Source: Nannobrachium achirus | Taxonomy: Eukaryota > Chordata > Actinopteri > Myctophiformes > Myctophidae | Direction of reading: 5' to 3' | NCBI GenBank assembly: GCA_963921795.1 | Contig: OY997654.1 | Span: forward strand, 186,001 to 250,000 | DNA length: 64,000 nucleotides | Shown: positions 840-64,000 of the stretch, one piece after another | How the letters are laid out: each line of letters opens with the position of its first letter | Numbering within the stretch: position 1 is the first letter of the stretch | Notes under the pieces: generated by a model | Database searches by the model: none | Told to the model about the DNA's origin: nothing | Seen by the model: the letters and a program-made list of their open reading frames with translations, nothing else | Translations under genes and position numbers: made by a program

Positions 840-1153
840 ATGCCCATATTTACAATTAAAGGACGATATAATGTAAGAGGTCACTTCCTCAAAACTTGGG
901 CTGTGGAGAAATAACTCTATGGGAGAAATACAGACAGGGAGACTGGGAGAGAGGAGGACTGACGACGTATGAGTCCAGTATCCAATGAACTGCGCGTTTG
1001 AGACTCATTATGCAGAAACCGGCACAAACACACAGATAGCAGGAAAACCACTGCATGTCAAAAGTTGTGTTTTTTTTGGTGTAATTGAGGCCAGGGAACA
1101 TTAAAAAAAGCATAAAAAACTCAAAATTTATTTTTGGATGTCACCACCCCTTT
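840..1153 (-). repeat. Possible remnant of a dispersed repeat ending in TTAA
   Basis: Read on the minus strand, this stretch starts with TTAAAGGGGTGGTGACATCC and continues with A/T-rich sequence. Fish genomes carry many interspersed repeats whose ends resemble TTAAAGGGGTGG, so this may be the end of one, cut exactly where the PLE array begins. This rests on recall of that end motif only; the family is not identified. Confidence 0.3.
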
Positions 1154-1520
1154 AATTCTCCCCAGCTTTTTGGTTTCAGCTTGCTCTGGAATCAGTAATC
1201 TCCATACTCTGGGTTTTGGTTGGGGTTCTTTTTTGCATGGGTATTTTGTGAGATGGCCTTCTTAAAGAGATATGGTATCCAGATGGATGCTTTAACAATC
1301 TTGACGGTTTTTAAGGGGTTTATTGAAGACTGGTAACTATGTTAAAACATAGAATGGCTGATGATTGAGGTTAAATACATGGGGTTGATGATATTGTTTT
1401 AGTACCAATAAGCAAAATTGAAAGTTGGGCTATGACTTTAACAGTATAAGGGCATTTGGACATAAGAATGTTTTTTTTGTGAAATTCTGAGGGCTTTTTT
1501 CAGAAACATAATTATAAAAC

Positions 1521-1613
1521 ATAAAATATAAAATATAAAATATAAAATATAAAATATAAAATATAAAATATAAAAAATATAAAATATAAAATATAAAATA
1601 TAAAATATAAAAT
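1521..1613. repeat. (ATAAAAT)n minisatellite, unit 1 (7 + spacer + 5)
   Basis: Seven exact ATAAAAT copies, one 9-bp variant ATAAAAAAT, then five exact copies: 93 bp, the longest allele in the window. On the minus strand it gives the spurious YILYFIF peptides. Confidence 0.95.
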
Positions 1614-2213
1614 GAAAGGGAATACATAATGGTGTATCTGATAAAATCTAAAAGGGAGTCCCGACAGGGACATAAAAACATAAAACATAACATAAAGAGA
1701 TAGAGAAATGTACAGTAGTGTTTGTTATAAACATTGTTTAGAAGTTGAAGATGGTTTAAACTATATGGTTTTAGGAATCAGCCCGAGGAACATAATTAAA
1801 ACTACAGGGTGGCCAGAAAAGTGTCCTGACGTGTATAACTTTTAGTATGAGGTTTAGCTGGTTTCAATAACTAAGGTATTCTTGACCTGGATGGAGTATG
1901 ATCATTTGGGTATGCGGTCTAGTTTTTAATGGGCTCAAGGAGTTGGACGTCCTTGCCCTGCACAGTCTCTCAGGTTTAGGTATAGTCTTATTGGTTTACA
2001 TAGTATTATTCACGTTTTTCAATGTGGCTTGGGGAGTGCTTGAGTCAAGTTTAACCAGTGTTGGCGGATGATGGAGAGCCCTTGTAGGCCAGAGCACCAG
2101 AGCAGTACACTGTCTCTTTAAGCGCAATTAGTTCATTATAAATCCTAACTTAGCGAGTGCCATGAGGGCTTCTCTGTCAGAGGTTTAACTGGTTGGACTG
2201 TTTAGGATAGTTT

Positions 2214-2388
2214 GGGAGTATAATACTCCCTTCTTAGTTCTGCTTACCATTTCAATGGGACTCAAATAACAGTGTTTTACTGTACCTCTAACAATAGTTT
2301 TGTAGGATTTGACTTAGGAAAGTGGAGTAGTATGACTTTAAAGTCACCTACAGCTTAATATAGGTGTATACATGTTGTATACCTATAT
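2214..2388. other. Cluster of three dyads in the leader
   Basis: Three inverted repeats lie within 175 bp. GGGAGTAT-A-ATACTCCC (2214-2230) has perfect 8-bp arms. TGACTTTAAAGTCA (2333-2346) is a perfect 14-bp palindrome. ATAGGTGTATAC pairs with GTATACCTAT across ATGTT (2359-2385) apart from a 2-nt bulge. They are kept in every unit. They could be protein-binding sites or RNA hairpins; nothing here decides. Confidence 0.6.
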
Positions 2389-2621
2389 ATTTGGGGATAT
2401 GGTTTCGTTGTCCATTGGTTTATTGATATAATTAACTTGGGGTATATCTAATATCCTTCTTATGTCTTTAGAGTTGCATTGAGATACTAGGGATGCATTT
2501 TAATTATTTTCTTTTTATATATGTTTGGGTTGTTTCTTATGTTTAAAATCTTCTTTTAAATTGAATTTCATATGTTTTAGGGTTTGGGTCCTATTTTAGA
2601 TAGGTTTGTATTAATTTTCTT

Positions 2622-2760
2622 TCCCCGCCATTTCTAGTGGCTCCTCCCCCCTCTTTCCAGTTTCTTTCCTTTTGACCAATGGGAGCGGAGTGTGATCCGG
2701 GGTTTGCGGGGGGCTCCACCCAGGAGTTACTCCCCCCTTGCCATTGTCTATTTCAGAAGT
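2622..2760 (+). promoter_or_regulatory. GC-rich CCAAT-box promoter-like block
   Basis: After AT-rich sequence the composition switches sharply. The block contains CCCCGCC, a CTCCTCCCCCC GC-box-like run, a CCAAT box (2676-2680, GACCAATGGG) and a second C-run before ATTGTC. No TATA box is obvious. The position about 100 bp upstream of the hammerhead-like motif and 630 bp upstream of ORF1 suits a TATA-less internal promoter. This is inferred from composition and motif only. Confidence 0.5.
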
Positions 2761-2783
2761 GTTTGGTTAGGGTAGCAACTATT

Positions 2784-2819
2784 CCCCTGATGAAGCCACA
2801 GATTTGGCGAAACGTTGGG
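2784..2819 (+). ncRNA. Hammerhead-ribozyme-like motif, unit 1
   Basis: CTGATGA (2787-2793) and GAAAC (2809-2813) match the two conserved core boxes of the hammerhead. Between them GCC and GGC form a short stem II with an 8-nt loop. CCC before and GGG after could form the start of stem I, giving predicted cleavage after 2816 (CGTT|GGG). Stem III would be only ACGT, as in minimal type I hammerheads of PLEs, which are thought to act better as dimers. Weak points: an extra A between CTGATGA and stem II, and a very short stem I. It may be a functional or a degenerate ribozyme. Confidence 0.55.
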
Positions 2820-3108
2820 TTTTATTAGAATTTTTAATTGTTTCTTTGGTTTTAAGTGGTGACGGCTCTTTTAATTCAATAAAGATTATACAGTTTTAAA
2901 CACTACGGAGGGCCCTACAGGGGACGCTTTCACCCCGGCCTGCTGAAGCTAAAGATTAAAGTACCTTTCCTCTTCCCTGGACCCGAGTGTGTCTTCACAG
3001 AGAGCAAAAGTTGGAGTCAGACGCGACGGCTGGGACGCTGGCTGCCGCGACCTTCAAAGCTACAGAAGAACCAAGGACAGCTGAAAACCTGGGGGAGTCG
3101 ATGGTTGG

Positions 3109-3194
3109 GTAAGGTCCTCCAGTTGCCAGTGGTTTATATTGTCTTTTCTTTATTGATGAAAGAAATGCACACTTAACCTTTTTTTTCCCCTTAG
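3109..3194 (+). other. Probable 86-bp 5'UTR intron, unit 1
   Basis: The donor is TTGG|GTAAGG at 3109. A branch-point-like CTTAAC lies at 3172-3177, followed by a T/C-rich tract and the acceptor CCCCTTAG| ending at 3194. The length is typical of short fish introns. It lies wholly upstream of ORF1, and a small upstream ATG (3101) stops soon whether or not it is spliced. Equivalent positions: 10899-10984, 18689-18774, 26487-26572, 36061-36146, 43851-43936, 51648-51733 and 59439-59524. Confidence 0.6.
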
Positions 3195-3306
3195 CATAAG
3201 GCAGTATTAGATTTGGGATAGATAAACATTCAGAATAATAGTAATAGTATTACTGATGTTATTAGACTAATACCGATATCTCAGTGTAGTTCGACTAACA
3301 TTCATT

Positions 3307-6024
3307 ATGGCATATAGAATTGAGCAATCTCGGGTATCGAGAAGAGACTCATATATTAGAACAAGGTCACAGGGGCCTCCTGTGGATTCTGGTCATGGTT
3401 TTGCTCCTAATGGTCTCGTCCCTTTAAATCACCCACCTGATGACGCCACACGGCATGCAGCTAAAGTTTATTTTAAGATAATTCAAGCCATACATCATAG
3501 GGGGGTTACAGACAGGGCAATTCACACGGGGTGTTTCCCTCCAGGGATGTCAAGACAGGTAGATAAGCTTACAGCTTTTATCAAACCTGCAGCCCCAATA
3601 GAATCGACTAGTCGTAAAGTAGCTGTAAATACAAGGCAATGGATGCAGAACAATATGGAAATATTACAGGGTCACTATAGGCATACGATTGCCACACTGA
3701 CTCAGCCGTTACAGCCACACAATCAGGAGGCTTTTGTCATAGCGATGGGATGGGCACGAAAGCGGTTTTCACATAGACTAATGTCAACAACCTTAGACGA
3801 GGTTGCAAACACACTACATTTGCATACACGCACACAACATGAACAAGCAAACATACAACAATCCACCTTGAGAACTCAGACACATATTGAGCCACATACA
3901 CAGGCATTACATGCACCAATGGGTACATACAGAGCACATCCCAACGCTATAGACTCCTCATCTCATTTAGGCCCCCATAGAGAAGTGGAGTGGCCACGCT
4001 TAACTAGAGAAGTACGTCCTCCACTGTTACCGACACCTAGGCGGAATGAAATTGGCATTCCACCTCTGTTGCCAAATTTAAGAAGACCAGATGGTAGATC
4101 TAGATCTGGGTTTGGTCGAAGGCCTGGTCCTTCTTCCAAACGAAATTATGGCCCTGGTGGTGGATCTGATGTGGGCTCTGGGCCTAGTTCTGATTTGCAT
4201 TTTGGTTCTAACGGTAGATTGAGTTTGGATGTTGACCCTAGTGCTAATCCTAATCCTATACATAGGGTGGATGGTGACTCTGTTCTTGACATGGAAATTG
4301 GCCCTGGCTCTAACCCTAACCCTAATCCTGGCCCTGACCCTGACCCTGACCCTAACCCTAACCCTAGTCTTAACCCTCAACCTGACTCTAACCCTAAACA
4401 TAACCTGGAGTCGGGTTCTGACCCTAACCCTAACCTTAAACATAACCCTAGCCCTAACCCTAACCCTAACCCTAACCCTAAACATAACCTTGAGTTGGGT
4501 TCTGACCCCAACCCTAACCTTAAACATAACCCTAGTGTTGACCTTGATCTTGGCTTGGATTTTGGTTCCATAGTGCGGGACTCTGTGCAGGTGGTGTCTC
4601 CTCTTCCTCCCCGTCCGGTAATAGCGGGACCGTGTGAAGATCTTTTGGTAGATGTAGATGTGGGCTTGCGGGCACAGGGTCTTGGAGAACTGCCGCTGGT
4701 TGTATCAGAGCAGGCTGTTGATGTTGTAGAGGAGGTTACGGTTCCATCTGTTGCAACGATTTCTGGAACAGCACAGATCACTCATAAGGATCCGTCCCAA
4801 TCTAGAATGGGGTTAACTAAGTCCAATATTTGCTCTCTGTATTTGGGGGAACGACCGAAAGCGTTCGGTCTACTTCCCCGGGAACAGAGACCACAACCAA
4901 ATAGAACGACGGTCCGTTCAGTGGTTCCTTTCCTTCCCTCTGTTTTGGAGGAGAAGGAGGATAAACTCTTAGAGGACCTTAGTGAGGAATTGGAATTGGA
5001 GAGTTCTATTCCTTCTCTTCCTCTCCCCTCTGCGACATCAACACCTATAATGGAGATACCAAGCCATAAAGGCACTTCTCCGTTTTCCCCTCAGCCTCGA
5101 AAATTGGGTTTTGATGGTACTGGGGAGATGACTAGTGTCACTGGCCCCTATAGCTCTTCTCAAAATTCTTCCTTTACTACACAGAGTTATTCCCAGTCTA
5201 ATTCTTCCATTAATGTTTATAGATCCAGAACAGTGGGGAACTTGAGTTTGAGTAAAGTCTTATTGACCTCTCTTTCTCCAACAGGAAGCGCCCATCGAAG
5301 GTCTGGTAATAAGAATAAAAAACAGGCAGGGGAGGTTATGATGAGCGAAACAGCTACAGCAAAAGGGTCAATCCCTGAACAACAAAAAATATCCTCTGAA
5401 CCCTCCTTTAACAGCCCAGTTCTGCCCAAAACCGACCTGTCTCTGGGGGCTTCCAATTTAGATATTATAACAGCTTCTTCTCCGTGCGTACCAACTTATC
5501 ATAGAGCCAGACCGGGTAAAAAATTGGTTGACTGGAAAATCCAAATTAGGGAAAAGGTGGCTTTTTTGGGTGACAGTAACTTGGCACGCATTCCTTCGTC
5601 TAACCGTACGGGAATTCAAATTGATAGCTATCCAGGTGCAGGTTTTCATCATATGACCAAGCTCTTTGAAATGGCAGAGTCTAATGGTGATGTGGAAACA
5701 GTTGTTATTTCGGTGGGGATTAACTGTAAAGACTTGGATGTCTTTCAGACTTCACTTAAGCAGCTGAGTGAGATGGTATTAAATGCTCGATTGGCCTTTC
5801 CGAATGCATCCATTTTTGTACCTTTGATCAATTATTCCAAATTCCTGATGCCCACGCAGAAAACTAATTTGAATCTTATTAATAATTACATTAAAGCACA
5901 TTTCAACTACCTGGATTCTATTCGTTCGGAGTGTTTCAATTGTACATCTGATTCGGTTCATTGGAAACAGGGTACAGCTAAGCTTATATTTGACCATTGG
6001 TGCACACAATTGAATTTTCAATAG
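3307..6024 (+). CDS. PLE ORF1: 905-aa protein with C-terminal SGNH-hydrolase domain
   Basis: Accessory ORF1 protein of the element. Residues 40-180 form a conserved-looking, helix-rich N-terminal domain of unknown fold with a KLTAFIKPAAP segment (87-97). Residues 181-330 are basic and Pro/Gly/Ser-rich; 335-410 are Asn-Pro repeats; 411-740 are low-complexity with an acidic patch (548-565). The end, about 748-900, reads as an SGNH/GDSL hydrolase: block I FLGDSN (Ser757), PGAG (776-779), GIN (804-806) and DSVH (882-885) supply the Ser, Gly, Asn and Asp/His positions. The SGNH fold usually means esterase activity, and such domains occur in ORF1 of CR1-type LINEs; the role here is unknown. The start is ATG with G at +4, just after stop-rich leader. 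It overlaps ORF2. Confidence 0.88.
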   Translation: MAYRIEQSRVSRRDSYIRTRSQGPPVDSGHGFAPNGLVPLNHPPDDATRHAAKVYFKIIQAIHHRGVTDRAIHTGCFPPGMSRQVDKLTAFIKPAAPIESTSRKVAVNTRQWMQNNMEILQGHYRHTIATLTQPLQPHNQEAFVIAMGWARKRFSHRLMSTTLDEVANTLHLHTRTQHEQANIQQSTLRTQTHIEPHTQALHAPMGTYRAHPNAIDSSSHLGPHREVEWPRLTREVRPPLLPTPRRNEIGIPPLLPNLRRPDGRSRSGFGRRPGPSSKRNYGPGGGSDVGSGPSSDLHFGSNGRLSLDVDPSANPNPIHRVDGDSVLDMEIGPGSNPNPNPGPDPDPDPNPNPSLNPQPDSNPKHNLESGSDPNPNLKHNPSPNPNPNPNPKHNLELGSDPNPNLKHNPSVDLDLGLDFGSIVRDSVQVVSPLPPRPVIAGPCEDLLVDVDVGLRAQGLGELPLVVSEQAVDVVEEVTVPSVATISGTAQITHKDPSQSRMGLTKSNICSLYLGERPKAFGLLPREQRPQPNRTTVRSVVPFLPSVLEEKEDKLLEDLSEELELESSIPSLPLPSATSTPIMEIPSHKGTSPFSPQPRKLGFDGTGEMTSVTGPYSSSQNSSFTTQSYSQSNSSINVYRSRTVGNLSLSKVLLTSLSPTGSAHRRSGNKNKKQAGEVMMSETATAKGSIPEQQKISSEPSFNSPVLPKTDLSLGASNLDIITASSPCVPTYHRARPGKKLVDWKIQIREKVAFLGDSNLARIPSSNRTGIQIDSYPGAGFHHMTKLFEMAESNGDVETVVISVGINCKDLDVFQTSLKQLSEMVLNARLAFPNASIFVPLINYSKFLMPTQKTNLNLINNYIKAHFNYLDSIRSECFNCTSDSVHWKQGTAKLIFDHWCTQLNFQ
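4311..4534 (+). repeat. Telomere-type (CCCTAA)-rich tract inside ORF1, unit 1
   Basis: Variants of the vertebrate telomere hexamer (CCCTAA on this strand, with CCCTGA and CCTTAA variants) run through ORF1 in frame and encode the Asn-Pro/Asp-Pro repeats. Five perfect CCCTAA copies lie at 4452-4481. A longer sub-repeat with AAACATAAC and GGGTTCTGAC spacers occurs at least twice. The tract is open in several frames on both strands, which produces long spurious ORFs there. Confidence 0.9.
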
Positions 6025-8705
6025 GACATGAGCAGAACTCTGGCCCCATTTTGCAGGAGAATACAGATGTGGTCCTTTCTCTGTTGCCTACTGTTGAAGT
6101 TTTGCCATTGAACCAGCAGCCTAGTGTACTGACAGGGACCGTTCCATTGACTTCTATTACTTTTTCTCAGGTGATTCAGCCTGTTGATTTAGTGACACAG
6201 CCTCCTTCAGAAGGAGAGATTTCTCAATTGAATGAAGTGTCTGTAGTCCCTATTATTATTTCTTCGCAACCTGTGCAACCTGAGGCAGCATTGGCTTCTC
6301 CTCCGGTTGAAATATTGAATTCTCAGTCTAACATAATGAATTTATCTCGGACTTTTCGGCTCACGGCCATGCAGACTCAGGTTTTGGAGAAAGGTCTTAC
6401 TTTTGTCCCGCGTCCGGAGAAACAGGACTGGGGGGAACTCAGAAGGGATACTTATAGATATCATAGACGATTGAAATTAATTGATTATTTCCAAGATACG
6501 GTTGCGGAGGATCGGGTGCCGTTTGTTCTGCCATCTAGTTGGGAGCCTGGAAATGCCCAACTGGATGTGAGAATAAAGCGACTTATCCAATTGGACAATC
6601 AGGCGCTTGACCATTATAATTGTCCCTCTGATAGACAGGATAATTTGACTGCACTGGAACGGGAGAGTTTAAAGGAATTGGAGAAGATCAAAAATATAAT
6701 AATCAAACCAGCCGATAAAGGCTCAAAAATAGTCATACTAGATACTTTCCAATATGTTTTTGAGGCTAACAGACAACTTTCTGATGCCAGATATTATAGA
6801 CCCATTACAGAAAGTATGCAGAAACAGTCACAGGTGAGATTGAGGGAAATTGTTGCTGAACTGTATCAGAGAAAATTTATAACAGCAAGACAGAGAAATT
6901 TTCTATTTGGACCTGATGACCCTAGACCTAGGATATTTTATTTACTCCCTAAGATCCATAAGGATCCAGGGACTTGGACAATACCCTACAGAGTTCCCCC
7001 TGGTAGACCTATAGTCTCGGACTGCAGTAGTGAATCTTATAATATAGCTCAATTTATAGATCATTTTCTGAATCCTCTATCTATGCTGCATCCCAGCTAT
7101 CTGAGGGATACTTATGACTTTCTGGCCAAGATCAAACCTATAGCTGTGCCCTCTGGTACATATATTTTCACTATTGACGTGGACAGCCTGTATACTAACA
7201 TAGATACGGTCACGGGATTGCGGACAGTAGAGAAACTATTTCAGTCACATCCAGATAACAATAGACCAGATCAGGCACTGTTACAGCTTCTTGAACTTAG
7301 TTTGAACTGTAATGATTTTGTCTTTGATGACAAACATTATTTACAGATACGGGGTACAGCTATGGGTAAAAAATTTGCGCCAGCATATGCTAATATTTAT
7401 ATGGCTGAGTGGGAGAGAGAGGCTTTAGCAAAATGTCCTTTGAAACCTGTGATGTATTATAGATATCTGGATGATATTATTGGACTGTGGCCATATAGTT
7501 TACAGGATTTCGAGGCTTTTATTCAGATCCTTAACACGCATCATGCATCTATAACGGTTAAATATGAGATTCATTCAACGGAAGTTAACTTTCTGGATAC
7601 TACAGTATATTTCAATCAAATGGATTCGACACAGAAACAACTACATACTAAAGTATACTTTAAAGACACTGACACACATGCACTATTGCATAAGCATAGT
7701 TACCATCCTAAACATACATTTCCTGGCATTGTGAAATCTCAGATCATTCGCTTTCATAGAATATGTTCATCTACACAACATTTTAATGAGGCCATACATA
7801 TATTATTCACAGCTCTACGTAGGAGGGGTTATGGTAAAAGGTTTCTTCGGACAATCAAGAATAGTACATTGGTGACTCTCTTTCCCACTCGTCTGGAGCA
7901 TATGGAAAGGTCCCTTGATAGTCAGGTAGATGCAGCATCGAGACAGGATCCTAACTTGAGTCCTGTAGCATCTGCTTCGGTGGGTCCTTCGATGGCCACA
8001 AGAGGTCCCCAGAGACCTTCCTCTGGTTCTACTGTGGAGATTGATTCAGTTGCACTTTTCAGGGTCACACAGGTTGCAGCGATCTCACCTTCTTTGGGGA
8101 TTCATTCTCCTGAGAATGTTAGTCTCATTCCTTTGATAACAACATTTTCACATAGATTACAACCTTTACATCATACATTTAAACAGAACTTCACAAACAC
8201 ACAACAAGCTTATCCTGCATTGGGTGAATATAGAATTATATCAGCTCTTAGAAAGAATAAGAATTTTGGAGATTTGTTGGTGCGGTCAGCCTTTTCATCT
8301 CTTCCAGACAGAGTGGGTGGACCATCACATACAAAACATTTTAAAGCTAGGAAGTTTATTAGAAATCCATATAGCCGTACTTCAGCTCCTATTGTTGATT
8401 CTCTGTCTCTTAACACTCCAAATATAGTTTATATCATTACCTGTACAAAATGTCAGAAGCATTATATTGGAGAGACGAAACATCCGTTACAGGTACGACT
8501 GAAACAACATCTGAGCCAGATCCGGGGTATAACTAACCATACTACATTGTATACACATTTTCGTTCACATTCTATTTCCAGCTTAATCATCACAGGACTA
8601 GAGTGTGGGGTGCAATGGACGAATGGACAACGAAAGCTTTTTGAACATAGATGGATAGAAAAACTTAAAACGGTAGTGCCTAATGGGCTAAATGAAAAAC
8701 CATAA
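5997..8705 (+). CDS. PLE ORF2: reverse transcriptase with C-terminal GIY-YIG endonuclease
   Basis: This is the catalytic protein of the element. Residue numbers count from a TTG at 5997, just after an in-frame stop at 5991. Residues 1-135 are variable. KPADKG (237-242) and LPKIHK (317-322) are PLE hallmarks. RT motifs: GRPIV (336-340), motif A TIDVDSLYTNI with Asp394, motif B RGTAMGKKFAPAYAN (452-466), motif C YLDD (490-493), and a FLDTTVY segment (532-538). A Ser/Pro-rich linker (about 640-740) leads to the GIY-YIG domain: VYIITC (811-816), HYIGET (822-827), Arg834, His838, a Glu near 883 and the PNGLNE tail. CTKC (816-819) is a possible metal-binding pair. No ATG occurs until 6336 (residue 114), so the real start is uncertain: frameshift from ORF1, non-ATG start, or ATG 6336. 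Neptune- or Poseidon-like, not assigned further. Confidence 0.93.
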   Translation: MVHTIEFSIGHEQNSGPILQENTDVVLSLLPTVEVLPLNQQPSVLTGTVPLTSITFSQVIQPVDLVTQPPSEGEISQLNEVSVVPIIISSQPVQPEAALASPPVEILNSQSNIMNLSRTFRLTAMQTQVLEKGLTFVPRPEKQDWGELRRDTYRYHRRLKLIDYFQDTVAEDRVPFVLPSSWEPGNAQLDVRIKRLIQLDNQALDHYNCPSDRQDNLTALERESLKELEKIKNIIIKPADKGSKIVILDTFQYVFEANRQLSDARYYRPITESMQKQSQVRLREIVAELYQRKFITARQRNFLFGPDDPRPRIFYLLPKIHKDPGTWTIPYRVPPGRPIVSDCSSESYNIAQFIDHFLNPLSMLHPSYLRDTYDFLAKIKPIAVPSGTYIFTIDVDSLYTNIDTVTGLRTVEKLFQSHPDNNRPDQALLQLLELSLNCNDFVFDDKHYLQIRGTAMGKKFAPAYANIYMAEWEREALAKCPLKPVMYYRYLDDIIGLWPYSLQDFEAFIQILNTHHASITVKYEIHSTEVNFLDTTVYFNQMDSTQKQLHTKVYFKDTDTHALLHKHSYHPKHTFPGIVKSQIIRFHRICSSTQHFNEAIHILFTALRRRGYGKRFLRTIKNSTLVTLFPTRLEHMERSLDSQVDAASRQDPNLSPVASASVGPSMATRGPQRPSSGSTVEIDSVALFRVTQVAAISPSLGIHSPENVSLIPLITTFSHRLQPLHHTFKQNFTNTQQAYPALGEYRIISALRKNKNFGDLLVRSAFSSLPDRVGGPSHTKHFKARKFIRNPYSRTSAPIVDSLSLNTPNIVYIITCTKCQKHYIGETKHPLQVRLKQHLSQIRGITNHTTLYTHFRSHSISSLIITGLECGVQWTNGQRKLFEHRWIEKLKTVVPNGLNEKP

Positions 8706-8954
8706 TGAAATGTTGAGAACATATAGATGCTGGTTAATTTAGGAAAGTGTGCATTTGCAGGGAAAAGTTAGACTTGATTCCACTTTGATAGGCTTAAGAC
8801 ATATGTTTATAATATCATTCACCATCCAGGTATCTTTTCATGCTCTTGTGTAAAAAAAATAAAAGCATGTGTTAATAAAATTATTCTTGGTATATTGACT
8901 TCTCTTGGTGTTTTTTTTATAGGATATCATGCTATTGTATGGTTTAAAGGGGGC
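8706..8954 (+). terminator. 3' tail of unit 1 with two AATAAA signals
   Basis: After TAA-TGA the tail carries two polyadenylation signals (8858-8863 and 8874-8879) and then a T-run ending TTATAG|G (8911-8922), which resembles a splice acceptor. It ends at GGGGGC, where the next unit begins. The corresponding tails of later units are near-identical; after units 3 and 7 ACCATCCAGG reads ACCATCAAGG (24407, 57366). Confidence 0.65.
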
Positions 8955-9323
8955 TTAATTCTCCCCAGCTTTTTGGTTTCAGCTTGCTCTGGAATCAGTA
9001 ATCTCCATACTCTGGGTTTTGGTTGGGGTTCTTTTTTGCATGGGTATTTTGTGAGATGGCCTTCTTAAAGAGATATGGTATCCAGATGGATGCTTTAACA
9101 ATCTTGACGGTTTTTAAGGGGTTTATTGAAGACTGGTAACTATGTTAAAACATAGAATGGCTGATGATTGAGGTTAAATACATGGGGTTGATGATATTGT
9201 TTTAGTACCAATAAGCAAAATTGAAAGTTGGGCTATGACTTTAACAGTATAAGGGCATTTGGACATAAGAATGTTTTTTTTGTGAAATTCTGAGGGCTTT
9301 TTTCAGAAACATAATTATAAAAC

Positions 9324-9402
9324 ATAAAATATAAAATATAAAATATAAAATATAAAATATAAAATATAAAAAATATAAAATATAAAATATAAAATATAAA
9401 AT
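9324..9402. repeat. (ATAAAAT)n minisatellite, unit 2 (6 + spacer + 4)
   Basis: 79-bp allele with the same ATAAAAAAT interruption as in unit 1. Confidence 0.95.
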
Positions 9403-10572
9403 GAAAGGGAATACATAATGGTGTATCTGATAAAATCTAAAAGGGAGTCCCGACAGGGACATAAAAACATAAAACATAACATAAAGAGATAGAGAAATGT
9501 ACAGTAGTGTTTGTTATAAACATTGTTTAGAAGTTGAAGATGGTTTAAACTATATGGTTTTAGGAATCAGCCCGAGGAACATAATTAAAACTACAGGGTG
9601 GCCAGAAAAGTGTCCTGACGTGTATAACTTTTAGTATGAGGTTTAGCTGGTTTCAATAACTAAGGTATTCTTGACCTGGATGGAGTATGATCATTTGGGT
9701 ATGCGGTCTAGTTTTTAATGGGCTCAAGGAGTTGGACGTCCTTGCCCTGCACAGTCTCTCAGGTTTAGGTATAGTCTTATTGGTTTACATAGTATTATTC
9801 ACGTTTTTCAATGTGGCTTGGGGAGTGCTTGAGTCAAGTTTAACCAGTGTTGGCGGATGATGGAGAGCCCTTGTAGGCCAGAGCACCAGAGCAGTACACT
9901 GTCTCTTTAAGCGCAATTAGTTCATTATAAATCCTAACTTAGCGAGTGCCATGAGGGCTTCTCTGTCAGAGGTTTAACTGGTTGGACTGTTTAGGATAGT
10001 TTGGGAGTATAATACTCCCTTCTTAGTTCTGCTTACCATTTCAATGGGACTCAAATAACAGTGTTTTACTGTACCTCTAACAATAGTTTTGTAGGATTTG
10101 ACTTAGGAAAGTGGAGTAGTATGACTTTAAAGTCACCTACAGCTTAATATAGGTGTATACATGTTGTATACCTATATATTTGGGGATATGGTTTCGTTGT
10201 CCATTGGTTTATTGATATAATTAACTTGGGGTATATCTAATATCCTTCTTATGTCTTTAGAGTTGCATTGAGATACTAGGGATGCATTTTAATTATTTTC
10301 TTTTTATATATGTTTGGGTTGTTTCTTATGTTTAAAATCTTCTTTTAAATTGAATTTCATATGTTTTAGGGTTTGGGTCCTATTTTAGATAGGTTTGTAT
10401 TAATTTTCTTTCCCCGCCATTTCTAGTGGCTCCTCCCCCCTCTTTCCAGTTTCTTTCCTTTTGACCAATGGGAGCGGAGTGTGATCCGGGGTTTGCGGGG
10501 GGCTCCACCCAGGAGTTACTCCCCCCTTGCCATTGTCTATTTCAGAAGTGTTTGGTTAGGGTAGCAACTATT

Positions 10573-10608
10573 CCCCTGATGAAGCCACAGATTTGGCGAA
10601 ACGTTGGG
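10573..10608 (+). ncRNA. Hammerhead-like motif, unit 2
   Basis: Same core as in unit 1; conserved C of CTGATGA at 10576, 7789 bp from the previous one. Confidence 0.55.
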
Positions 10609-11096
10609 TTTTATTAGAATTTTTAATTGTTTCTTTGGTTTTAAGTGGTGACGGCTCTTTTAATTCAATAAAGATTATACAGTTTTAAAACACTACGGAG
10701 GGCCCTACAGGGGACGCTTTCACCCCGGCCTGCTGAAGCTAAAGATTAAAGTACCTTTCCTCTTCCCTGGACCCGAGTGTGTCTTCACAGAGAGCAAAAG
10801 TTGGAGTCAGACGCGACGGCTGGGACGCTGGCTGCCGCGACCTTCAAAGCTACAGAAGAACCAAGGACAGCTGAAAACCTGGGGGAGTCGATGGTTGGGT
10901 AAGGTCCTCCAGTTGCCAGTGGTTTATATTGTCTTTTCTTTATTGATGAAAGAAATGCACACTTAACCTTTTTTTTCCCCTTAGCATAAGGCAGTATTAG
11001 ATTTGGGATAGATAAACATTCAGAATAATAGTAATAGTATTACTGATGTTATTAGACTAATACCGATATCTCAGTGTAGTTCGACTAACATTCATT

Positions 11097-51321: not shown

Positions 51322-51357
51322 CCCCTGATGAAGCCAAAGATTTGGCGAAACGTTGGG
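51322..51357 (+). ncRNA. Hammerhead-like motif, unit 7 (loop variant)
   Basis: Same loop substitution as in unit 3 (A at 51337); core boxes and stem II unchanged. Confidence 0.55.
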
Positions 51358-57244: not shown

Positions 57245-57863
57245 TGAAATGTTGAGAACATATAGATGCTGGTTAATTTAGGAAAGTGTGCATTTGCAGG
57301 GAAAAGTTAGACTTGATTCCACTTTGATAGGCTTAAGACATATGTTTATAATATCATTCACCATCAAGGTATCTTTTCATGCTCTTGTGTAAAAAAAATA
57401 AAAGCATGTGTTAATAAAATTATTCTTGGTATATTGACTTCTCTTGGTGTTTTTTTTATAGGATATCATGCTATTGTATGGTTTAAAGGGGGCTTAATTC
57501 TCCCCAGCTTTTTGGTTTCAGCTTGCTCTGGAATCAGTAATCTCCATACTCTGGGTTTTGGTTGGGGTTCTTTTTTGCATGGGTATTTTGTGAGATGGCC
57601 TTCTTAAAGAGATATGGTATCCAGATGGATGCTTTAACAATCTTGACGGTTTTTAAGGGGTTTATTGAAGACTGGTAACTATGTTAAAACATAGAATGGC
57701 TGATGATTGAGGTTAAATACATGGGGTTGATGATATTGTTTTAGTACCAATAAGCAAAATTTTAAGTTGGGCTATGACTTTAACAGTATAAGGGCAATTT
57801 GGACATAAGAATGTTTTTTTTGTGAAATTCTGAGGGCTTTTTTCAGAAACATAATTATAAAAC

Positions 57864-57942
57864 ATAAAATATAAAATATAAAATATAAAATATAAAATAT
57901 AAAATATAAAAAATATAAAATATAAAATATAAAATATAAAAT
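57864..57942. repeat. (ATAAAAT)n minisatellite, unit 8 (6 + spacer + 4)
   Basis: 79-bp allele; its sister unit 4 has 86 bp with another arrangement. Confidence 0.95.
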
Positions 57943-59112
57943 GAAAGGGAATACATAATGGTGTATCTGATAAAATCTAAAAGGGAGTCCCGACAGGGAC
58001 ATAAAAACATAAAACATAACATAAAGAGATAGAGAAATGTACAGTAGTGTTTGTTATAAACATTGTTTAGAAGTTGAAGATGGTTTAAACTATATGGTTT
58101 TAGGAATCAGCCCGAGGAACATAATTAAAACTACAGGGTGGCCAGAAAAGTGTCCTGACGTGTATAACTTTTAGTATGAGGTTTAGCTGGTTTCAATAAC
58201 TAAGGTATTCTTGACCTGGATGGAGTATGATCATTTGGGTATGCGGTCTAGTTTTTAATGGGCTCAAGGAGTTGGACGTCCTTGCCCTGCACAGTCTCTC
58301 AGGTTTAGGTATAGTCTTATTGGTTCACATAGTATTATTCACGTTTTTCAATGTGGCTTGGGGAGTGCTTGAGTCAAGTTTAACCAGTGTTGGCGGATGA
58401 TGGAGAGCCCTTGTAGGCCAGAGCACCAGAGCAGTACACTGTCTCTTTAAGCGCAATTAGTTCATTATAAATCCTAACTTAGCGAGTGCCATGAGGGCTT
58501 CTCTGTCAGAGGTTTAACTGGTTGGACTGTTTAGGATAGTTTGGGAGTATAATACTCCCTTCTTAGTTCTGCTTACCATTTCAATGGGACTCAAATAACA
58601 GTGTTTTACTGTACCTCTAACAATAGTTTTGTAGGATTTGACTTAGGAAAGTGGAGTAGTATGACTTTAAAGTCACCTACAGCTTAATATAGGTGTATAC
58701 ATGTTGTATACCTATATATTTGGGGATATGGTTTCGTTGTCCATTGGTTTATTGATATAATTAACTTGGGGTATATCTAATATCCTTCTTATGTCTATAG
58801 AGTTGCATTGAGATACTAGGGATGCATTTTAATTATTTTCTTTTTATATATGTTTGGGTTGTTTCTTATGTTTAAAATCTTCTTTTAAATTGAATTTCAT
58901 ATGTTTTAGGGTTTGGGTCCTATTTTAGATAGGTTTGTATTAATTTTCTTTCCCCGCCATTTCTAGTGGCTCCTCCCCCCTCTTTCCAGTTTCTTTCCTT
59001 TTGACCAATGGGAGCGGAGTGTGATCCGGGGTTTGCGGGGGGCTCCACCCAGGAGTTACTCCCCCCTTGCCATTGTCTATTTCAGAAGTGTTTGGTTAGG
59101 GTAGCAACTATT

Positions 59113-59148
59113 CCCCTGATGAAGCCACAGATTTGGCGAAACGTTGGG
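59113..59148 (+). ncRNA. Hammerhead-like motif, unit 8
   Basis: Identical to the motif of unit 1; conserved C at 59116. Confidence 0.55.
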
Positions 59149-59636
59149 TTTTATTAGAATTTTTAATTGTTTCTTTGGTTTTAAGTGGTGACGGCTCTTT
59201 TAATTCAATAAAGATTATACAGTTTTAAAACACTACGGAGGGCCCTACAGGGGACGCTTTCACCCCGGCCTGCTGAAGCTAAAGATTAAAGTACCTTTCC
59301 TCTTCCCTGGACCCGAGTGTGTCTTCACAGAGAGCAAAAGTTGGAGTCAGACGCGACGGCTGGGACGCTGGCTGCCGCGACCTTCAAAGCTACAGAAGAA
59401 CCAAGGACAGCTGAAAACCTGGGGGAGTCGATGGTTGGGTAAGGTCCTCCAGTTGCCAGTGGTATATATTGTCTTTTCTTTATTGATGAAAGAAATGCAC
59501 ACTTAACCTTTTTTTTCCCCTTAGCATAAGGCAGTATTAGATTTGGGATAGATAAACATTCAGAATAATAGTAATAGTATTACTGATGTTATTAGACTAA
59601 TACCGATATCTCAGTGTAGTTCGACTAACATTCATT

Positions 59637-62354
59637 ATGGCATATAGAATTGAGCAATCTCGGGTATCGAGAAGAGACTCATATATTAGAACAAGGTCAC
59701 AGGGGCCTCCTGTGGATTCTGGTCATGGTTTTGCTCCTAATGGTCTCGTCCCTTTAAATCACCCACCTGATGACGCCACACGGCATGCAGCTAAAGTTTA
59801 TTTTAAGATAATTCAAGCCATACATCATAGGGGGGTTACAGACAGGGCAATTCACACGGGGTGTTTCCCTCCAGGGATGTCAAGACAGGTAGATAAGCTT
59901 ACAGCTTTTATCAAACCTGCAGCCCCAATAGAATCGACTAGTCGTAAAGTAGCTGTAAATACAAGGCAATGGATGCAGAACAATATGGAAATATTACAGG
60001 GTCACTATAGGCATACGATTGCCACACTGACTCAGCCGTTACAGCCACACAATCAGGAGGCTTTTGTCATAGCGATGGGATGGGCACGAAAGCGGTTTTC
60101 ACATAGACTAATGTCAACAACCTTAGACGAGGTTGCAAACACACTACATTTGCATACACGCACACAACATGAACAAGCAAACATACAACAATCCACCTTG
60201 AGAACTCAGACACATATTGAGCCACATACACAGGCATTACATGCACCAATGGGTACATACAGAGCACATCCCAACGCTATAGACTCCTCATCTCATTTAG
60301 GCCCCCATAGAGAAGTGGAGTGGCCACGCTTAACTAGAGAAGTACGTCCTCCACTGTTACCGACACCTAGGCGGAATGAAATTGGCATTCCACCTCTGTT
60401 GCCAAATTTAAGAAGACCAGATGGTAGATCTAGATCTGGGTTTGGTCGAAGGCCTGGTCCTTCTTCCAAACGAAATTATGGCCCTGGTGGTGGATCTGAT
60501 GTGGGCTCTGGGCCTAGTTCTGATTTGCATTTTGGTTCTAACGGTAGATTGAGTTTGGATGTTGACCCTAGTGCTAATCCTAATCCTATACATAGGGTGG
60601 ATGGTGACTCTGTTCTTGACATGGAAATTGGCCCTGGCTCTAACCCTAACCCTAATCCTGGCCCTGACCCTGACCCTGACCCTAACCCTAACCCTAGTCT
60701 TAACCCTCAACCTGACTCTAACCCTAAACATAACCTGGAGTCGGGTTCTGACCCTAACCCTAACCTTAAACATAACCCTAGCCCTAACCCTAACCCTAAC
60801 CCTAACCCTAAACATAACCTTGAGTTGGGTTCTGACCCCAACCCTAACCTTAAACATAACCCTAGTGTTGACCTTGATCTTGGCTTGGATTTTGGTTCCA
60901 TAGTGCGGGACTCTGTGCAGGTGGTGTCTCCTCTTCCTCCCCGTCCGGTAATAGCGGGACCGTGTGAAGATCTTTTGGTAGATGTAGATGTGGGCTTGCG
61001 GGCACAGGGTCTTGGAGAACTGCCGCTGGTTGTATCAGAGCAGGCTGTTGATGTTGTAGAGGAGGTTACGGTTCCATCTGTTGCAACGATTTCTGGAACA
61101 GCACAGATCACTCATAAGGATCCGTCCCAATCTAGAATGGGGTTAACTAAGTCCAATATTTGCTCTCTGTATTTGGGGGAACGACCGAAAGCGTTCGGTC
61201 TACTTCCCCGGGAACAGAGACCACAACCAAATAGAACGACGGTCCGTTCAGTGGTTCCTTTCCTTCCCTCTGTTTTGGAGGAGAAGGAGGATAAACTCTT
61301 AGAGGACCTTAGTGAGGAATTGGAATTGGAGAGTTCTATTCCTTCTCTTCCTCTCCCCTCTGCGACATCAACACCTATAATGGAGATACCAAGCCATAAA
61401 GGCACTTCTCCGTTTTCCCCTCAGCCTCGAAAATTGGGTTTTGATGGTACTGGGGAGATGACTAGTGTCACTGGCCCCTATAGCTCTTCTCAAAATTCTT
61501 CCTTTACTACACAGAGTTATTCCCAGTCTAATTCTTCCATTAATGTTTATAGATCCAGAACAGTGGGGAACTTGAGTTTGAGTAAAGTCTTATTGACCTC
61601 TCTTTCTCCAACAGGAAGCGCCCATCGAAGGTCTGGTAATAAGAATAAAAAACAGGCAGGGGAGGTTATGATGAGCGAAACAGCTACAGCAAAAGGGTCA
61701 ATCCCTGAACAACAAAAAATATCCTCTGAACCCTCCTTTAACAGCCCAGTTCTGCCCAAAACCGACCTGTCTCTGGGGGCTTCCAATTTAGATATTATAA
61801 CAGCTTCTTCTCCGTGCGTACCAACTTATCATAGAGCCAGACCGGGTAAAAAATTGGTTGACTGGAAAATCCAAATTAGGGAAAAGGTGGCTTTTTTGGG
61901 TGACAGTAACTTGGCACGCATTCCTTCGTCTAACCGTACGGGAATTCAAATTGATAGCTATCCAGGTGCAGGTTTTCATCATATGACCAAGCTCTTTGAA
62001 ATGGCAGAGTCTAATGGTGATGTGGAAACAGTTGTTATTTCGGTGGGGATTAACTGTAAAGACTTGGATGTCTTTCAGACTTCACTTAAGCAGCTGAGTG
62101 AGATGGTATTAAATGCTCGATTGGCCTTTCCGAATGCATCCATTTTTGTACCTTTGATCAATTATTCCAAATTCCTGATGCCCACGCAGAAAACTAATTT
62201 GAATCTTATTAATAATTACATTAAAGCACATTTCAACTACCTGGATTCTATTCGTTCGGAGTGTTTCAATTGTACATCTGATTCGGTTCATTGGAAACAG
62301 GGTACAGCTAAGCTTATATTTGACCATTGGTGCACACAATTGAATTTTCAATAG
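59637..62354 (+). CDS. PLE ORF1 (SGNH protein), unit 8
   Basis: 905 aa, protein as in unit 1. Confidence 0.88.
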   Translation: MAYRIEQSRVSRRDSYIRTRSQGPPVDSGHGFAPNGLVPLNHPPDDATRHAAKVYFKIIQAIHHRGVTDRAIHTGCFPPGMSRQVDKLTAFIKPAAPIESTSRKVAVNTRQWMQNNMEILQGHYRHTIATLTQPLQPHNQEAFVIAMGWARKRFSHRLMSTTLDEVANTLHLHTRTQHEQANIQQSTLRTQTHIEPHTQALHAPMGTYRAHPNAIDSSSHLGPHREVEWPRLTREVRPPLLPTPRRNEIGIPPLLPNLRRPDGRSRSGFGRRPGPSSKRNYGPGGGSDVGSGPSSDLHFGSNGRLSLDVDPSANPNPIHRVDGDSVLDMEIGPGSNPNPNPGPDPDPDPNPNPSLNPQPDSNPKHNLESGSDPNPNLKHNPSPNPNPNPNPKHNLELGSDPNPNLKHNPSVDLDLGLDFGSIVRDSVQVVSPLPPRPVIAGPCEDLLVDVDVGLRAQGLGELPLVVSEQAVDVVEEVTVPSVATISGTAQITHKDPSQSRMGLTKSNICSLYLGERPKAFGLLPREQRPQPNRTTVRSVVPFLPSVLEEKEDKLLEDLSEELELESSIPSLPLPSATSTPIMEIPSHKGTSPFSPQPRKLGFDGTGEMTSVTGPYSSSQNSSFTTQSYSQSNSSINVYRSRTVGNLSLSKVLLTSLSPTGSAHRRSGNKNKKQAGEVMMSETATAKGSIPEQQKISSEPSFNSPVLPKTDLSLGASNLDIITASSPCVPTYHRARPGKKLVDWKIQIREKVAFLGDSNLARIPSSNRTGIQIDSYPGAGFHHMTKLFEMAESNGDVETVVISVGINCKDLDVFQTSLKQLSEMVLNARLAFPNASIFVPLINYSKFLMPTQKTNLNLINNYIKAHFNYLDSIRSECFNCTSDSVHWKQGTAKLIFDHWCTQLNFQ
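60641..60864 (+). repeat. Telomere-type tract in ORF1, unit 8
   Basis: Same length and order as in unit 1. Confidence 0.9.
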
Positions 62355-64000
62355 GACATGAGCAGAACTCTGGCCCCATTTTGCAGGAGAATACAGATGT
62401 GGTCCTTTCTCTGTTGCCTACTGTTGAAGTTTTGCCATTGAACCAGCAGCCTAGTGTACTGACAGGGACCGTTCCATTGACTTCTATTACTTTTTCTCAG
62501 GTGATTCAGCCTGTTGATTTAGTGACACAGCCTCCTTCAGAAGGAGAGATTTCTCAATTGAATGAAGTGTCTGTAGTCCCTATTATTATTTCTTCGCAAC
62601 CTGTGCAACCTGAGGCAGCATTGGCTTCTCCTCCGGTTGAAATATTGAATTCTCAGTCTAACATAATGAATTTATCTCGGACTTTTCGGCTCACGGCCAT
62701 GCAGACTCAGGTTTTGGAGAAAGGTCTTACTTTTGTCCCGCGTCCGGAGAAACAGGACTGGGGGGAACTCAGAAGGGATACTTATAGATATCATAGACGA
62801 TTGAAATTAATTGATTATTTCCAAGATACGGTTGCGGAGGATCGGGTGCCGTTTGTTCTGCCATCTAGTTGGGAGCCTGGAAATGCCCAACTGGATGTGA
62901 GAATAAAGCGACTTATCCAATTGGACAATCAGGCGCTTGACCATTATAATTGTCCCTCTGATAGACAGGATAATTTGACTGCACTGGAACGGGAGAGTTT
63001 AAAGGAATTGGAGAAGATCAAAAATATAATAATCAAACCAGCCGATAAAGGCTCAAAAATAGTCATACTAGATACTTTCCAATATGTTTTTGAGGCTAAC
63101 AGACAACTTTCTGATGCCAGATATTATAGACCCATTACAGAAAGTATGCAGAAACAGTCACAGGTGAGATTGAGGGAAATTGTTGCTGAACTGTATCAGA
63201 GAAAATTTATAACAGCAAGACAGAGAAATTTTCTATTTGGACCTGATGACCCTAGACCTAGGATATTTTATTTACTCCCTAAGATCCATAAGGATCCAGG
63301 GACTTGGACAATACCCTACAGAGTTCCCCCTGGTAGACCTATAGTCTCGGACTGCAGTAGTGAATCTTATAATATAGCTCAATTTATAGATCATTTTCTG
63401 AATCCTCTATCTATGCTGCATCCCAGCTATCTGAGGGATACTTATGACTTTCTGGCCAAGATCAAACCTATAGCTGTGCCCTCTGGTACATATATTTTCA
63501 CTATTGACGTGGACAGCCTGTATACTAACATAGATACGGTCACGGGATTGCGGACAGTAGAGAAACTATTTCAGTCACATCCAGATAACAATAGACCAGA
63601 TCAGGCACTGTTACAGCTTCTTGAACTTAGTTTGAACTGTAATGATTTTGTCTTTGATGACAAACATTATTTACAGATACGGGGTACAGCTATGGGTAAA
63701 AAATTTGCGCCAGCATATGCTAATATTTATATGGCTGAGTGGGAGAGAGAGGCTTTAGCAAAATGTCCTTTGAAACCTGTGATGTATTATAGATATCTGG
63801 ATGATATTATTGGACTGTGGCCATATAGTTTACAGGATTTCGAGGCTTTTATTCAGATCCTTAACACGCATCATGCATCTATAACGGTTAAATATGAGAT
63901 TCATTCAACGGAAGTTAACTTTCTGGATACTACAGTATATTTCAATCAAATGGATTCGACACAGAAACAACTACATACTAAAGTATACTTTAAAGACACT
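62327..64000 (+). CDS. PLE ORF2 (RT-GIY-YIG), unit 8, cut by window end
   Basis: 558 codons are visible, covering the N-terminal region and RT motifs through YLDD. The open frame continues to the last base, so the GIY-YIG part lies outside the window. No ATG until 62666. Confidence 0.9.
   Translation, partial: MVHTIEFSIGHEQNSGPILQENTDVVLSLLPTVEVLPLNQQPSVLTGTVPLTSITFSQVIQPVDLVTQPPSEGEISQLNEVSVVPIIISSQPVQPEAALASPPVEILNSQSNIMNLSRTFRLTAMQTQVLEKGLTFVPRPEKQDWGELRRDTYRYHRRLKLIDYFQDTVAEDRVPFVLPSSWEPGNAQLDVRIKRLIQLDNQALDHYNCPSDRQDNLTALERESLKELEKIKNIIIKPADKGSKIVILDTFQYVFEANRQLSDARYYRPITESMQKQSQVRLREIVAELYQRKFITARQRNFLFGPDDPRPRIFYLLPKIHKDPGTWTIPYRVPPGRPIVSDCSSESYNIAQFIDHFLNPLSMLHPSYLRDTYDFLAKIKPIAVPSGTYIFTIDVDSLYTNIDTVTGLRTVEKLFQSHPDNNRPDQALLQLLELSLNCNDFVFDDKHYLQIRGTAMGKKFAPAYANIYMAEWEREALAKCPLKPVMYYRYLDDIIGLWPYSLQDFEAFIQILNTHHASITVKYEIHSTEVNFLDTTVYFNQMDSTQKQLHTKVYFKDT

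What the first reader, a model, noticed from the sequence alone, without database searches (positions are those of the whole stretch)
1152..64000. Coding Penelope-like element arranged as a satellite-like tandem array
Nearly eight near-identical 7.79-kb units follow head to tail with no spacer, all in one orientation, with ORF1 and ORF2 open in every complete unit except the one with a LINE. PLEs are known to form partial or double tandem copies, but a long array of complete units that behaves like a megasatellite is unusual. It may come from unequal exchange, rolling-circle-type amplification, or reverse transcription of multimeric RNA.
Basis: partly seen in the sequence, partly recalled or inferred. 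Interest (0 to 1): 0.85.

Follow-up and report, generated by a model that had tools for sequence, protein, structure and literature searches.

The report
Telomere-targeting Penelope arrays in a fish
The window lies inside a long tandem array, near a chromosome end of what is probably a fish, of a protein-coding Penelope-type jumping gene whose copies attach at one fixed base to telomere-type repeats, so a relative of telomerase seems to seek out telomere sequence.

Summary
The array is real and larger than reported. The window (C17:186001-250000) lies inside a 31-unit, one-orientation array at C17:7,654-267,817; position 1152 is only the end of a TTAA-flanked insert inside a unit.

Each 7.79-kb unit has ORF1 and an RT plus GIY-YIG ORF2: an EN+ Penelope-like element.

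The array's proximal edge joins a perfect (CCTAAC)n tract at the element's 3' end, and a second array, on C15, joins a telomeric tract at the same base. The three arrays on chromosome-size contigs lie near contig ends with 3' ends proximal. Of 27 listed dispersed 3' ends, 26 are followed by CCTAA. Three, plus a variant, sit in the telomere-like tract of a MITE-like repeat whose empty copies exist. No free 5' start was found: 72 of 79 are shown to be tandem junctions with a 6-bp spacer, 7 unresolved.

Four secondary insertions recur at identical sites in 3-4 units each, so the array spread at DNA level.

Verdict: a telomere-repeat-targeting, endonuclease-bearing PLE homogenised into subtelomeric arrays; a new variant.

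The parts
1..1151 (.). 3' part of secondary insertion B (1.5 kb, TTAA on both sides, piggyBac-like by that mark only) inside an array unit; its start lies outside the window
1152..2149 (+). 3' end of a unit (3'UTR to ATTATAAAT + CCTAAC)
2150..9938 (+). complete unit 1 (ORF1 3307-6024, ORF2 6336-8705)
9939..17728 (+). complete unit 2, used as reference 'el' (ORF1 11097-13814, ORF2 14126-16495)
17729..25526 (+). complete unit 3 (ORF1 18887-21604, ORF2 21916-24285)
25527..35100 (+). unit 4, carrying the LINE inside ORF2 (ORF1 26685-29402 open; ORF2 cut to 227 aa at 29714-30397)
30348..32130 (-). secondary insertion C: LINE fragment (RVT_1 and ALKBH8_N; minus-strand frame 30542-32233 starts in flanking unit sequence). 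The same insertion at the same site occurs in 4 units of the C17 array
35101..42890 (+). complete unit 5 (ORF1 36259-38976, ORF2 39288-41657)
42891..50687 (+). complete unit 6 (ORF1 44049-46766, ORF2 47078-49447)
50688..58478 (+). complete unit 7 (ORF1 51846-54563, ORF2 54875-57244)
58479..64000 (+). 5' part of the next unit (ORF1 59637-62354 open); the array continues to C17:267,817
17714..17734 (+). example unit junction ATTATAAAT-CCTAAC-TTAGCG: element 3' end, one telomeric hexamer, next unit
12100..12325 (+). CCTAAC-like repeat inside ORF1, encoding a Pro/Asn-rich stretch; listed at the same place in all 8 ORF1 copies of the window
14939..15328 (+). reverse transcriptase domain of ORF2 (aa 272-401; PF00078, 25.8 bits, below its 29.6 cut-off)
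16214..16462 (+). C-terminal GIY-YIG endonuclease domain of ORF2 (aa 697-779; PF01541, 29.4 bits, above its 22.6 cut-off)
13257..13811 (+). ORF1 C-terminal region with SGNH/GDSL-esterase-like motifs (GDSN, YPGAG, SVGIN, DSVHW), also in the C18 relative; the motif reading is recalled and no family search confirmed it

Best explanation
The array is a subtelomeric block of an endonuclease-bearing (EN+) Penelope-like retrotransposon that targets telomeric-repeat DNA. The element's 3' end (ATTATAAAT) is joined at a fixed base to the C-rich strand of telomeric tracts (CCTAAC...). So first-strand cDNA is primed from the 3' end of the TTAGGG strand, either at a telomere end or at a nick in an interstitial tract. 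Shown: the junction point, the target tracts, the orientation of the three placed arrays, and that the array spread at DNA level after four secondary insertions. Inferred: priming by pairing of CCUAAC in the element RNA with GTTAGG of the target; the GIY-YIG enzyme as nicking activity at internal tracts; founding of the tandem by copying a multimeric or read-through RNA or by template jumping; later expansion and homogenisation by unequal exchange in the subtelomere.
For: Joints: C17 array proximal edge = element 3' end followed by (CCTAAC)6.8; C15 array edge = ATTAAAAAT followed by about 250 bp of CCTAAC/CCGAAC; C108 and C450 likewise. Without a telomere condition the exact 3' end occurs 108 times, control 0; of the 27 dispersed places among the 100 listed, 26 are followed by CCTAA and 1 by CATAAC. 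Seven copies judged truncated to about 19-68 bp have at least one CCTAA on the 5' side, 7 of 7; two of these match only the 19-bp search pattern itself. Pre-existing target: a MITE-like repeat with such a tract has 98 exact copies of one flank, 2 of which adjoin a listed PLE 3' end; 5 others read carry no PLE, 4 of them with a long tract; PLE copies L041, L042, L048 sit in that tract and L063 in a variant of it. Position: C15, C17, C18 arrays near contig ends, 3' end proximal in 3 of 3. DNA-level spread: insertions A x3, B x4, C x4, D x3 at identical sites, copies 98.8-100% alike; unit types recur in blocks. Coding constraint: dN/dS between subfamilies 0.09 for ORF2 (RT part 0.03, EN part 0.07 over 94 codons) and 0.11 for 244 codons of ORF1; dS is above 1, so near saturation.
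Against: No array is shown to be the physical chromosome end: a 136-bp satellite lies distal to the C17 array, C15 ends inside the array and about 109 kb lies beyond the C18 array. Dispersed copies are not telomere-oriented: 10 of 27 point their 5' end to the nearer contig end (hand count), so the target is the sequence rather than the end. The C18 proximal edge reads N and could not be tested. One hexamer may belong to the element itself; by a hand count allowing slips about 20 of 27 dispersed copies have two or more downstream repeats. Many copies are not intact: of 21 C17 ORF2 frames with the expected start, 14 are full length, and only one listed C18 ORF1 match covers all 915 aa. No reads, RNA or enzyme data.
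Confidence: 0.82

Rival explanations
1. The telomeric tract after the 3' end is made by the element: the reverse transcriptase copies a CCUAAC template repeatedly, as some LINEs are recalled to make short tandem 3' tails. The target would then be ordinary DNA.
For: Unit junctions that were read carry one CCTAAC, so a hexamer template may be in the RNA; tract lengths vary.
Against: Copies judged truncated have CCTAA on the 5' side as well, 7 of 7, two of them weak; the tract belongs to a MITE-like repeat with 98 flank copies, of which 2 adjoin a listed PLE 3' end and 5 others read carry none; the C15 tract carries CCGAAC variants over about 250 bp.
Confidence: 0.1
2. An ordinary megasatellite: a PLE copy trapped in a subtelomere was amplified by unequal exchange; telomere contact is incidental.
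For: DNA-level amplification is shown by shared insertions and recurring unit types; frog subtelomeres are proposed to favour tandem expansion by unequal crossing over (PMC10794172, passages).
Against: Two subfamilies form arrays at different chromosome ends with the same telomeric joint, and 26 of 27 listed dispersed 3' ends are followed by CCTAA.
Confidence: 0.06
3. Terminal addition only (HeT-A/Athena-like): elements prime on natural 3' overhangs of eroded telomeres and interior copies are relics of old chromosome ends. As one of two routes it is compatible with the best explanation.
For: 3 of 3 placed arrays have the orientation expected; short copies have telomeric tracts on both sides.
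Against: Three copies, and a fourth in a variant, sit in the tract of a dispersed MITE-like repeat, unlikely ever to have been a chromosome end; the EN part is under purifying selection, dN/dS 0.07; 10 of 27 dispersed copies only have the expected orientation.
Confidence: 0.12
4. Rolling-circle reverse transcription of a circular element RNA built the arrays directly. Not exclusive of telomere targeting.
For: Constant head-to-tail joint with a 6-bp spacer.
Against: No hammerhead by Rfam gathering score in the window, by relaxed Rfam search of 8500-19000, or by core-motif scan of one unit; shared secondary insertions show later growth at DNA level.
Confidence: 0.1
5. Assembly artefact.
For: The C18 proximal flank reads N and C15 ends inside the array.
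Against: C17:1-260000 has no N; unit-specific variants, four kinds of inserts and non-array sequence on both sides of the C17 array.
Confidence: 0.03

Closest known systems
Athena and other endonuclease-deficient telomeric Penelope-like elements, Terminons (PMC3846280, PMC10088271, PMC5408684: passages seen; the 2007 PNAS paper is recalled, not read)
   Same: PLE RT; association with telomeric repeats; 5' side towards the telomere in the placed arrays; short 5'-truncated copies with telomeric repeats beyond the 5' end; GDSL-type ORFs also reported in Athena families
   Different: Here ORF2 keeps a GIY-YIG domain under purifying selection, the host is a vertebrate (probably a fish), copies also sit in interstitial tracts, and near-complete units form long homogenised arrays
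Canonical EN+ PLEs such as Poseidon PAc of Anolis carolinensis (PMC11167929, passages seen)
   Same: RT plus C-terminal GIY-YIG in one ORF; tandem organisation; PAc starts reverse transcription inside its RNA
   Different: PAc is reported to prefer AT-rich targets and to carry a hammerhead ribozyme; here the 3' joint is to CCCTAA tracts, no hammerhead was found, and a second large ORF precedes the RT ORF
SART/TRAS of Bombyx mori and Tx1-1_ACar of the anole (PMC7265360 abstract and outline; PMC10088271 passages)
   Same: Insertion into telomeric repeats beside telomerase-made repeats
   Different: SART/TRAS are described there as non-LTR (R1) retrotransposons, and Tx1 is a LINE clade (recalled); none is a PLE
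HeT-A/TART/TAHRE arrays of Drosophila (PMC5537684, search listing and start of abstract only)
   Same: Retrotransposon arrays at chromosome ends; head-to-tail with 3' end proximal (orientation recalled)
   Different: Non-LTR elements in a species without telomerase; here telomerase-type repeats are present
Degraded GIY-YIG PLEs beside telomere-like repeats and an integrated herpesvirus in lake sturgeon (PMC12031113, passages seen)
   Same: GIY-YIG PLE next to telomere-like repeats in a fish
   Different: Its authors treat such PLEs as inserting at random AT-rich sites; no arrays or fixed joint are described in the passages seen

Membership tests
Penelope-like element (EN+) | RT and C-terminal GIY-YIG domain in one ORF | tested here: met
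   GIY-YIG 29.4 bits, above cut-off; RVT_1 25.8 bits, E 1e-5, below its 29.6 cut-off; RT before EN in one 789-aa ORF
Penelope-like element (EN+) | RT groups with PLE/telomerase RTs in a tree | not tested
   No reference PLE sequences were at hand; no PDB sequence hit at E 1
Penelope-like element (EN+) | Tandem or partial-tandem organisation | tested here: met
Penelope/Poseidon-type PLE | Hammerhead ribozyme near the unit junction | tested here: not met
   No Rfam hit at gathering score in the window, none among 7 relaxed hits in 8500-19000, none by core-motif scan of one unit
Endonuclease-deficient telomeric PLE (Athena type) | Lack of GIY-YIG domain | tested here: not met
   Domain present, dN/dS 0.07 over 94 codons
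Endonuclease-deficient telomeric PLE (Athena type) | Telomere-oriented 5' ends | tested here: inconclusive
   3 of 3 placed arrays but only 10 of 27 dispersed copies (hand count)
Endonuclease-deficient telomeric PLE (Athena type) | Truncated 5' ends followed by telomeric repeats | tested here: met
   7 of 7 copies judged truncated, two matching only the 19-bp pattern; some lie in interstitial tracts, so this is not capping in the strict sense. The distal C17 unit is an exception: it joins a 136-bp satellite
Satellite/megasatellite array | Head-to-tail units homogenised at DNA level | tested here: met
   99.87% mean identity of 27 rows, shared insertions and recurring unit types
Telomere-specific LINE (SART/TRAS) | Non-LTR (LINE) retrotransposon without GIY-YIG | tested here: not met
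   The ORF2 endonuclease is GIY-YIG
Telomere-maintaining element (HeT-A type) | Extends chromosome ends in living cells | not testable with these tools
   Assembly data only

The most novel reading that the evidence does not exclude
The element works like a telomerase that copies itself. Its RNA, read across the conserved joint AUAAAU-CCUAAC-U(U/G)AGC, carries an internal CCUAAC template that aligns the TTAGGG 3' end, and the PLE reverse transcriptase then copies the element upstream of it instead of adding hexamers. The tandem state would then be the mobile form, which would explain why no free 5' start was found among 79 (70 lie 6 bp after a listed 3' end, 2 were read with a variant 3' end, 7 have no listed partner), in subfamilies with dS above 1.
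Probability: 0.3. Interest if true: 0.92.

Novelty: new variant of a known kind. Interest (0 to 1): 0.76.

Why it matters
PLEs are held to share an ancestor with telomerase reverse transcriptases, and the PLEs linked to telomeres were described as lacking endonuclease (PMC3846280, passages seen). A GIY-YIG-bearing vertebrate PLE with a fixed telomeric joint and open reading frames gives a tractable system: one can ask whether a PLE enzyme positions a TTAGGG 3' end on a CCUAAC template as telomerase does. It also shows how a telomere-seeking element can seed arrays of over a hundred kilobases near chromosome ends, and it may explain PLEs beside telomere-like repeats in other fish, such as those reported in sturgeon.

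Tried and rejected
Tried without result: hammerhead search for a rolling-circle route. PDB sequence matches for ORF1 and ORF2: none at E 1. AlphaFold of the ORF1 C-terminus: pLDDT 42.9, too poor for a fold search, so none was run. Pfam on ORF1: nothing credible. A close relative of ORF2 in viral contigs: no pattern match. A small hairpin upstream of the 3' end: predicted folds inconsistent, not claimed. Never answered: a count of the flank CCTAACCCTAACCTCAGTAAAAC, a search for long TTAGGG runs, a search for two hexamers before the 5' start. One hit (C398, L052) was dropped from the dispersed set: no match beyond ATTATAAAT; it may be chance or a 9-bp remnant, since its flank resembles the MITE-like repeat. 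One listed 3' end on C417 and those on C84 and C366 were not read.

Papers: PMC8557442 and 10.1093/molbev/msx159 are not held. No report of an EN+ PLE that targets telomeric repeats was seen in the listings of searches of this open-licence library; three listings were capped (25 of 344, 20 of 304, 15 of 410), and most subscription papers are not held.

Full report
1. What is there. The window is C17:186001-250000 of a 1.66-Gb, 564-contig assembly; C17 is 62.85 Mb long. A RAG1 gene is present, and its best solved relatives are 3jbw and 6dbi, at higher score than the entry labelled mouse RAG1. I recall those two as zebrafish RAG1, so the host is probably a ray-finned fish. The array runs from C17:7,654 to 267,817 on the + strand; C17:260001-266000 was not read but is hit by searches. 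Thirty 5' starts plus one truncated distal copy give 31 units. The first unit is cut at element position about 1436 and joins a 136-bp CA-rich satellite, 56 copies, that fills C17:1-7658.

2. Anatomy of a unit (window 9939-17728). The leader has 1,158 bp. ORF1 has 905 aa with a Pro/Asn-rich stretch coded by CCTAAC-like hexamers. In the densest 75-aa window Pro is CCT in 22 of 23 codons against 29 of 69 outside, and Asn is AAC in 18 of 19 against 11 of 39; in the C18 relative the bias is weaker (22 of 25 and 12 of 18 inside). The ORF1 C-terminus has SGNH-like motifs by eye only; Pfam does not confirm them. ORF2 has 789 aa, RT then GIY-YIG. The unit ends ATTATAAAT-CCTAAC. On C17:1-260000, 26 of 28 ORF1 frames and 14 of 21 ORF2 frames that begin with the expected residues are full length; the 7 short ORF2 frames are cut to 227 aa (4) or 698 aa (3), matching the LINE and insertion D. 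By homology, one search lists 24 full-length ORF2 frames without stops on C17. In the C18 array only one listed ORF1 match covers all 915 aa.

3. The array spread at DNA level. Four secondary insertions recur at identical unit positions: A in 3 units, B in 4, C (the LINE) in 4, D in 3, copies 98.8-100% alike within each set. The flanking duplications are ACAGAT (A), TTAACAC (D) and TTAA (B); for C the repeat is imperfect. Among 27 aligned rows (one spans two units) mean pairwise identity is 99.87%, minimum 99.70%, with 57 variable columns, 36 shared by two or more rows. Three of the four LINE-bearing rows (u04, u13, u22) are followed by nearly the same unit type; the fourth (u10) is not. Independent retrotransposition does not give this.

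4. Telomeric joints. The proximal C17 unit ends in ATTATAAAT directly joined to a perfect (CCTAAC)6.8; a second run of 7.5 copies begins about 370 bp further in. The C15 array, of 9,164-bp units of a subfamily 82% alike in ORF2, joins about 250 bp of CCTAAC/CCGAAC repeats at the same base (ATTAAAAAT there). C108 and C450 do likewise. C15 and C18 belong to one subfamily (99.5% alike); the one C18 unit read lacks the LINE that the two C15 units read carry. In element orientation this means that cDNA was primed on the 3' end of the TTAGGG strand.

5. Genome-wide test. Pattern ATTATAAATCCTAACCCTAACCC gave 16 places, control 0. I read 15 more of them (the C17 one was held already): 14 are element 3' ends and one (C398) is not clearly so. 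Because that pattern presupposes the telomere, I searched the 3' end alone: CAAYYAGTYCATTATAAAT gave 108 places, control 0, 100 of them listed. Of the listed, 73 lie on array or unplaced contigs (C15 4, C17 30, C18 18, C84 2, C108 2, C366 4, C417 1, C450 12) and 27 are dispersed. Flanks of all 27 were read (12): 26 are followed by CCTAA and one by CATAAC. One of the 26 (C11, 4.95 Mb) is a lone tandem joint. By a hand count allowing slips about 20 of 27 have two or more repeats. Three C14 copies share one flank and count as one event. The exact pattern favours young copies; divergent ones were not sampled.

6. Target, not tail. Seven copies judged truncated to about 19-68 bp have CCTAA on their 5' side, 7 of 7, though two (L057, L061) match only the 19-bp search pattern itself and the 5' flank read is short for L054 and L065. 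Some copies lie in a short MITE-like repeat with inverted ends (GGTGTCAGACCGCCATTCC) around a telomere-like tract. One flank of it has 98 exact copies; 2 of these adjoin a listed PLE 3' end (C6, C23). Five others were read: four show a long tract without a PLE and the fifth has a short tract, also without one. L041, L042 and L048 carry PLE 3' ends in that tract and L063 in a variant of it, from three subfamilies by their 3' ends. So the tract was there first.

7. The joint between units. The 5' start TKAGCSAGTGCCATGRGG occurs 79 times, control 0. Seventy lie exactly 6 bp after a 3' end listed; two have a variant 3' end seen in sequence (C17:168437; C21, L046); for seven on C450 no partner is listed (8 of the 108 places are unlisted). 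No free 5' start was seen. Where the 6 bp were read they are CCTAAC (28 on C17, one more, two on C15, one on C18, one on C11), with TCTAAC once (L046). A constant spacer in subfamilies with dS above 1 suggests that the joint is copied as part of the element, as in other tandem PLEs.

8. Position and orientation. Arrays sit within 268 kb of the C17 start (+ strand), at the very end of C15 (- strand), and about 109-239 kb from the C18 end (- strand); in all three the 3' end is proximal. The last 4 kb of C18 hold long CCTAAC runs between other repeats. Against a pure end-targeting model, 10 of 27 dispersed copies point their 5' end towards the nearer contig end (hand count). The rule is therefore 'telomeric sequence', with arrays persisting near ends. 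C84, C108, C366 and C450 are not placed; lengths are known for C108 (68 kb) and C450 (155 kb).

9. Coding constraint. Between the C17 and C15 subfamilies dN/dS is 0.091 for ORF2 (784 codons), 0.032 for its RT part, 0.073 for the EN part (94 codons) and 0.112 for 244 codons of ORF1. dS is 1.1-2.0, near saturation, so ratios are rough. The joint region is conserved where the UTRs align only in patches.

10. Mechanism. Shown: target, joint, orientation of placed arrays, DNA-level spread, coding constraint. Inferred: pairing of CCUAAC with GTTAGG, nicking by GIY-YIG at internal tracts, founding of the tandem by multimeric RNA or template jumping. The published finding that an EN+ PLE, PAc, starts reverse transcription inside its RNA (PMC11167929, passages) makes an internal CCUAAC template plausible.

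11. Novelty. Telomere-associated PLEs are described as EN-deficient (PMC3846280, passages). A sturgeon study saw degraded GIY-YIG PLEs bounded by telomere-like repeats but took such PLEs as random inserters (PMC12031113, passages). I saw no report of an EN+ PLE that targets telomeric repeats in the listings of searches (open-licence library only, three listings capped). I class it as a new variant of a known kind.

Noticed in passing
L009:1-7658 (C17:1-7658): 136-bp CA-rich satellite, 56 copies, directly distal to the array; related copies, about 79-85% alike, lie on contigs C54, C232 and C342, and one 95% match on C401.
   Followed up: partly
L071-L074, L042: MITE-like repeat with inverted ends around a telomere-like CCCTAA tract, 98 exact copies of one flank; a source of interstitial telomeric sequence that serves as landing pad.
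   Followed up: partly
L043-L046, L054, L057-L059, L062, L064-L067: A recurrent flank, CCTAAC-like repeats then CTCAGT, follows many PLE 3' ends; probably another dispersed repeat with a telomeric tract.
   Followed up: no
window 12100-12325 and same place in the other units: ORF1 encodes a Pro/Asn repeat from telomere-like hexamers with codon bias, strong in the C17 subfamily and weaker in C18.
   Followed up: partly
L033, L034 (C15 units): Both C15 units read carry a LINE in ORF1 (428-aa RT frame), so a LINE-bearing form was amplified there, while the C18 unit of the same subfamily that was read lacks it.
   Followed up: partly
L038 (last 4 kb of C18): Long CCTAAC runs alternate with a non-telomeric repeat block; the contig end itself is not pure telomere.
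   Followed up: no
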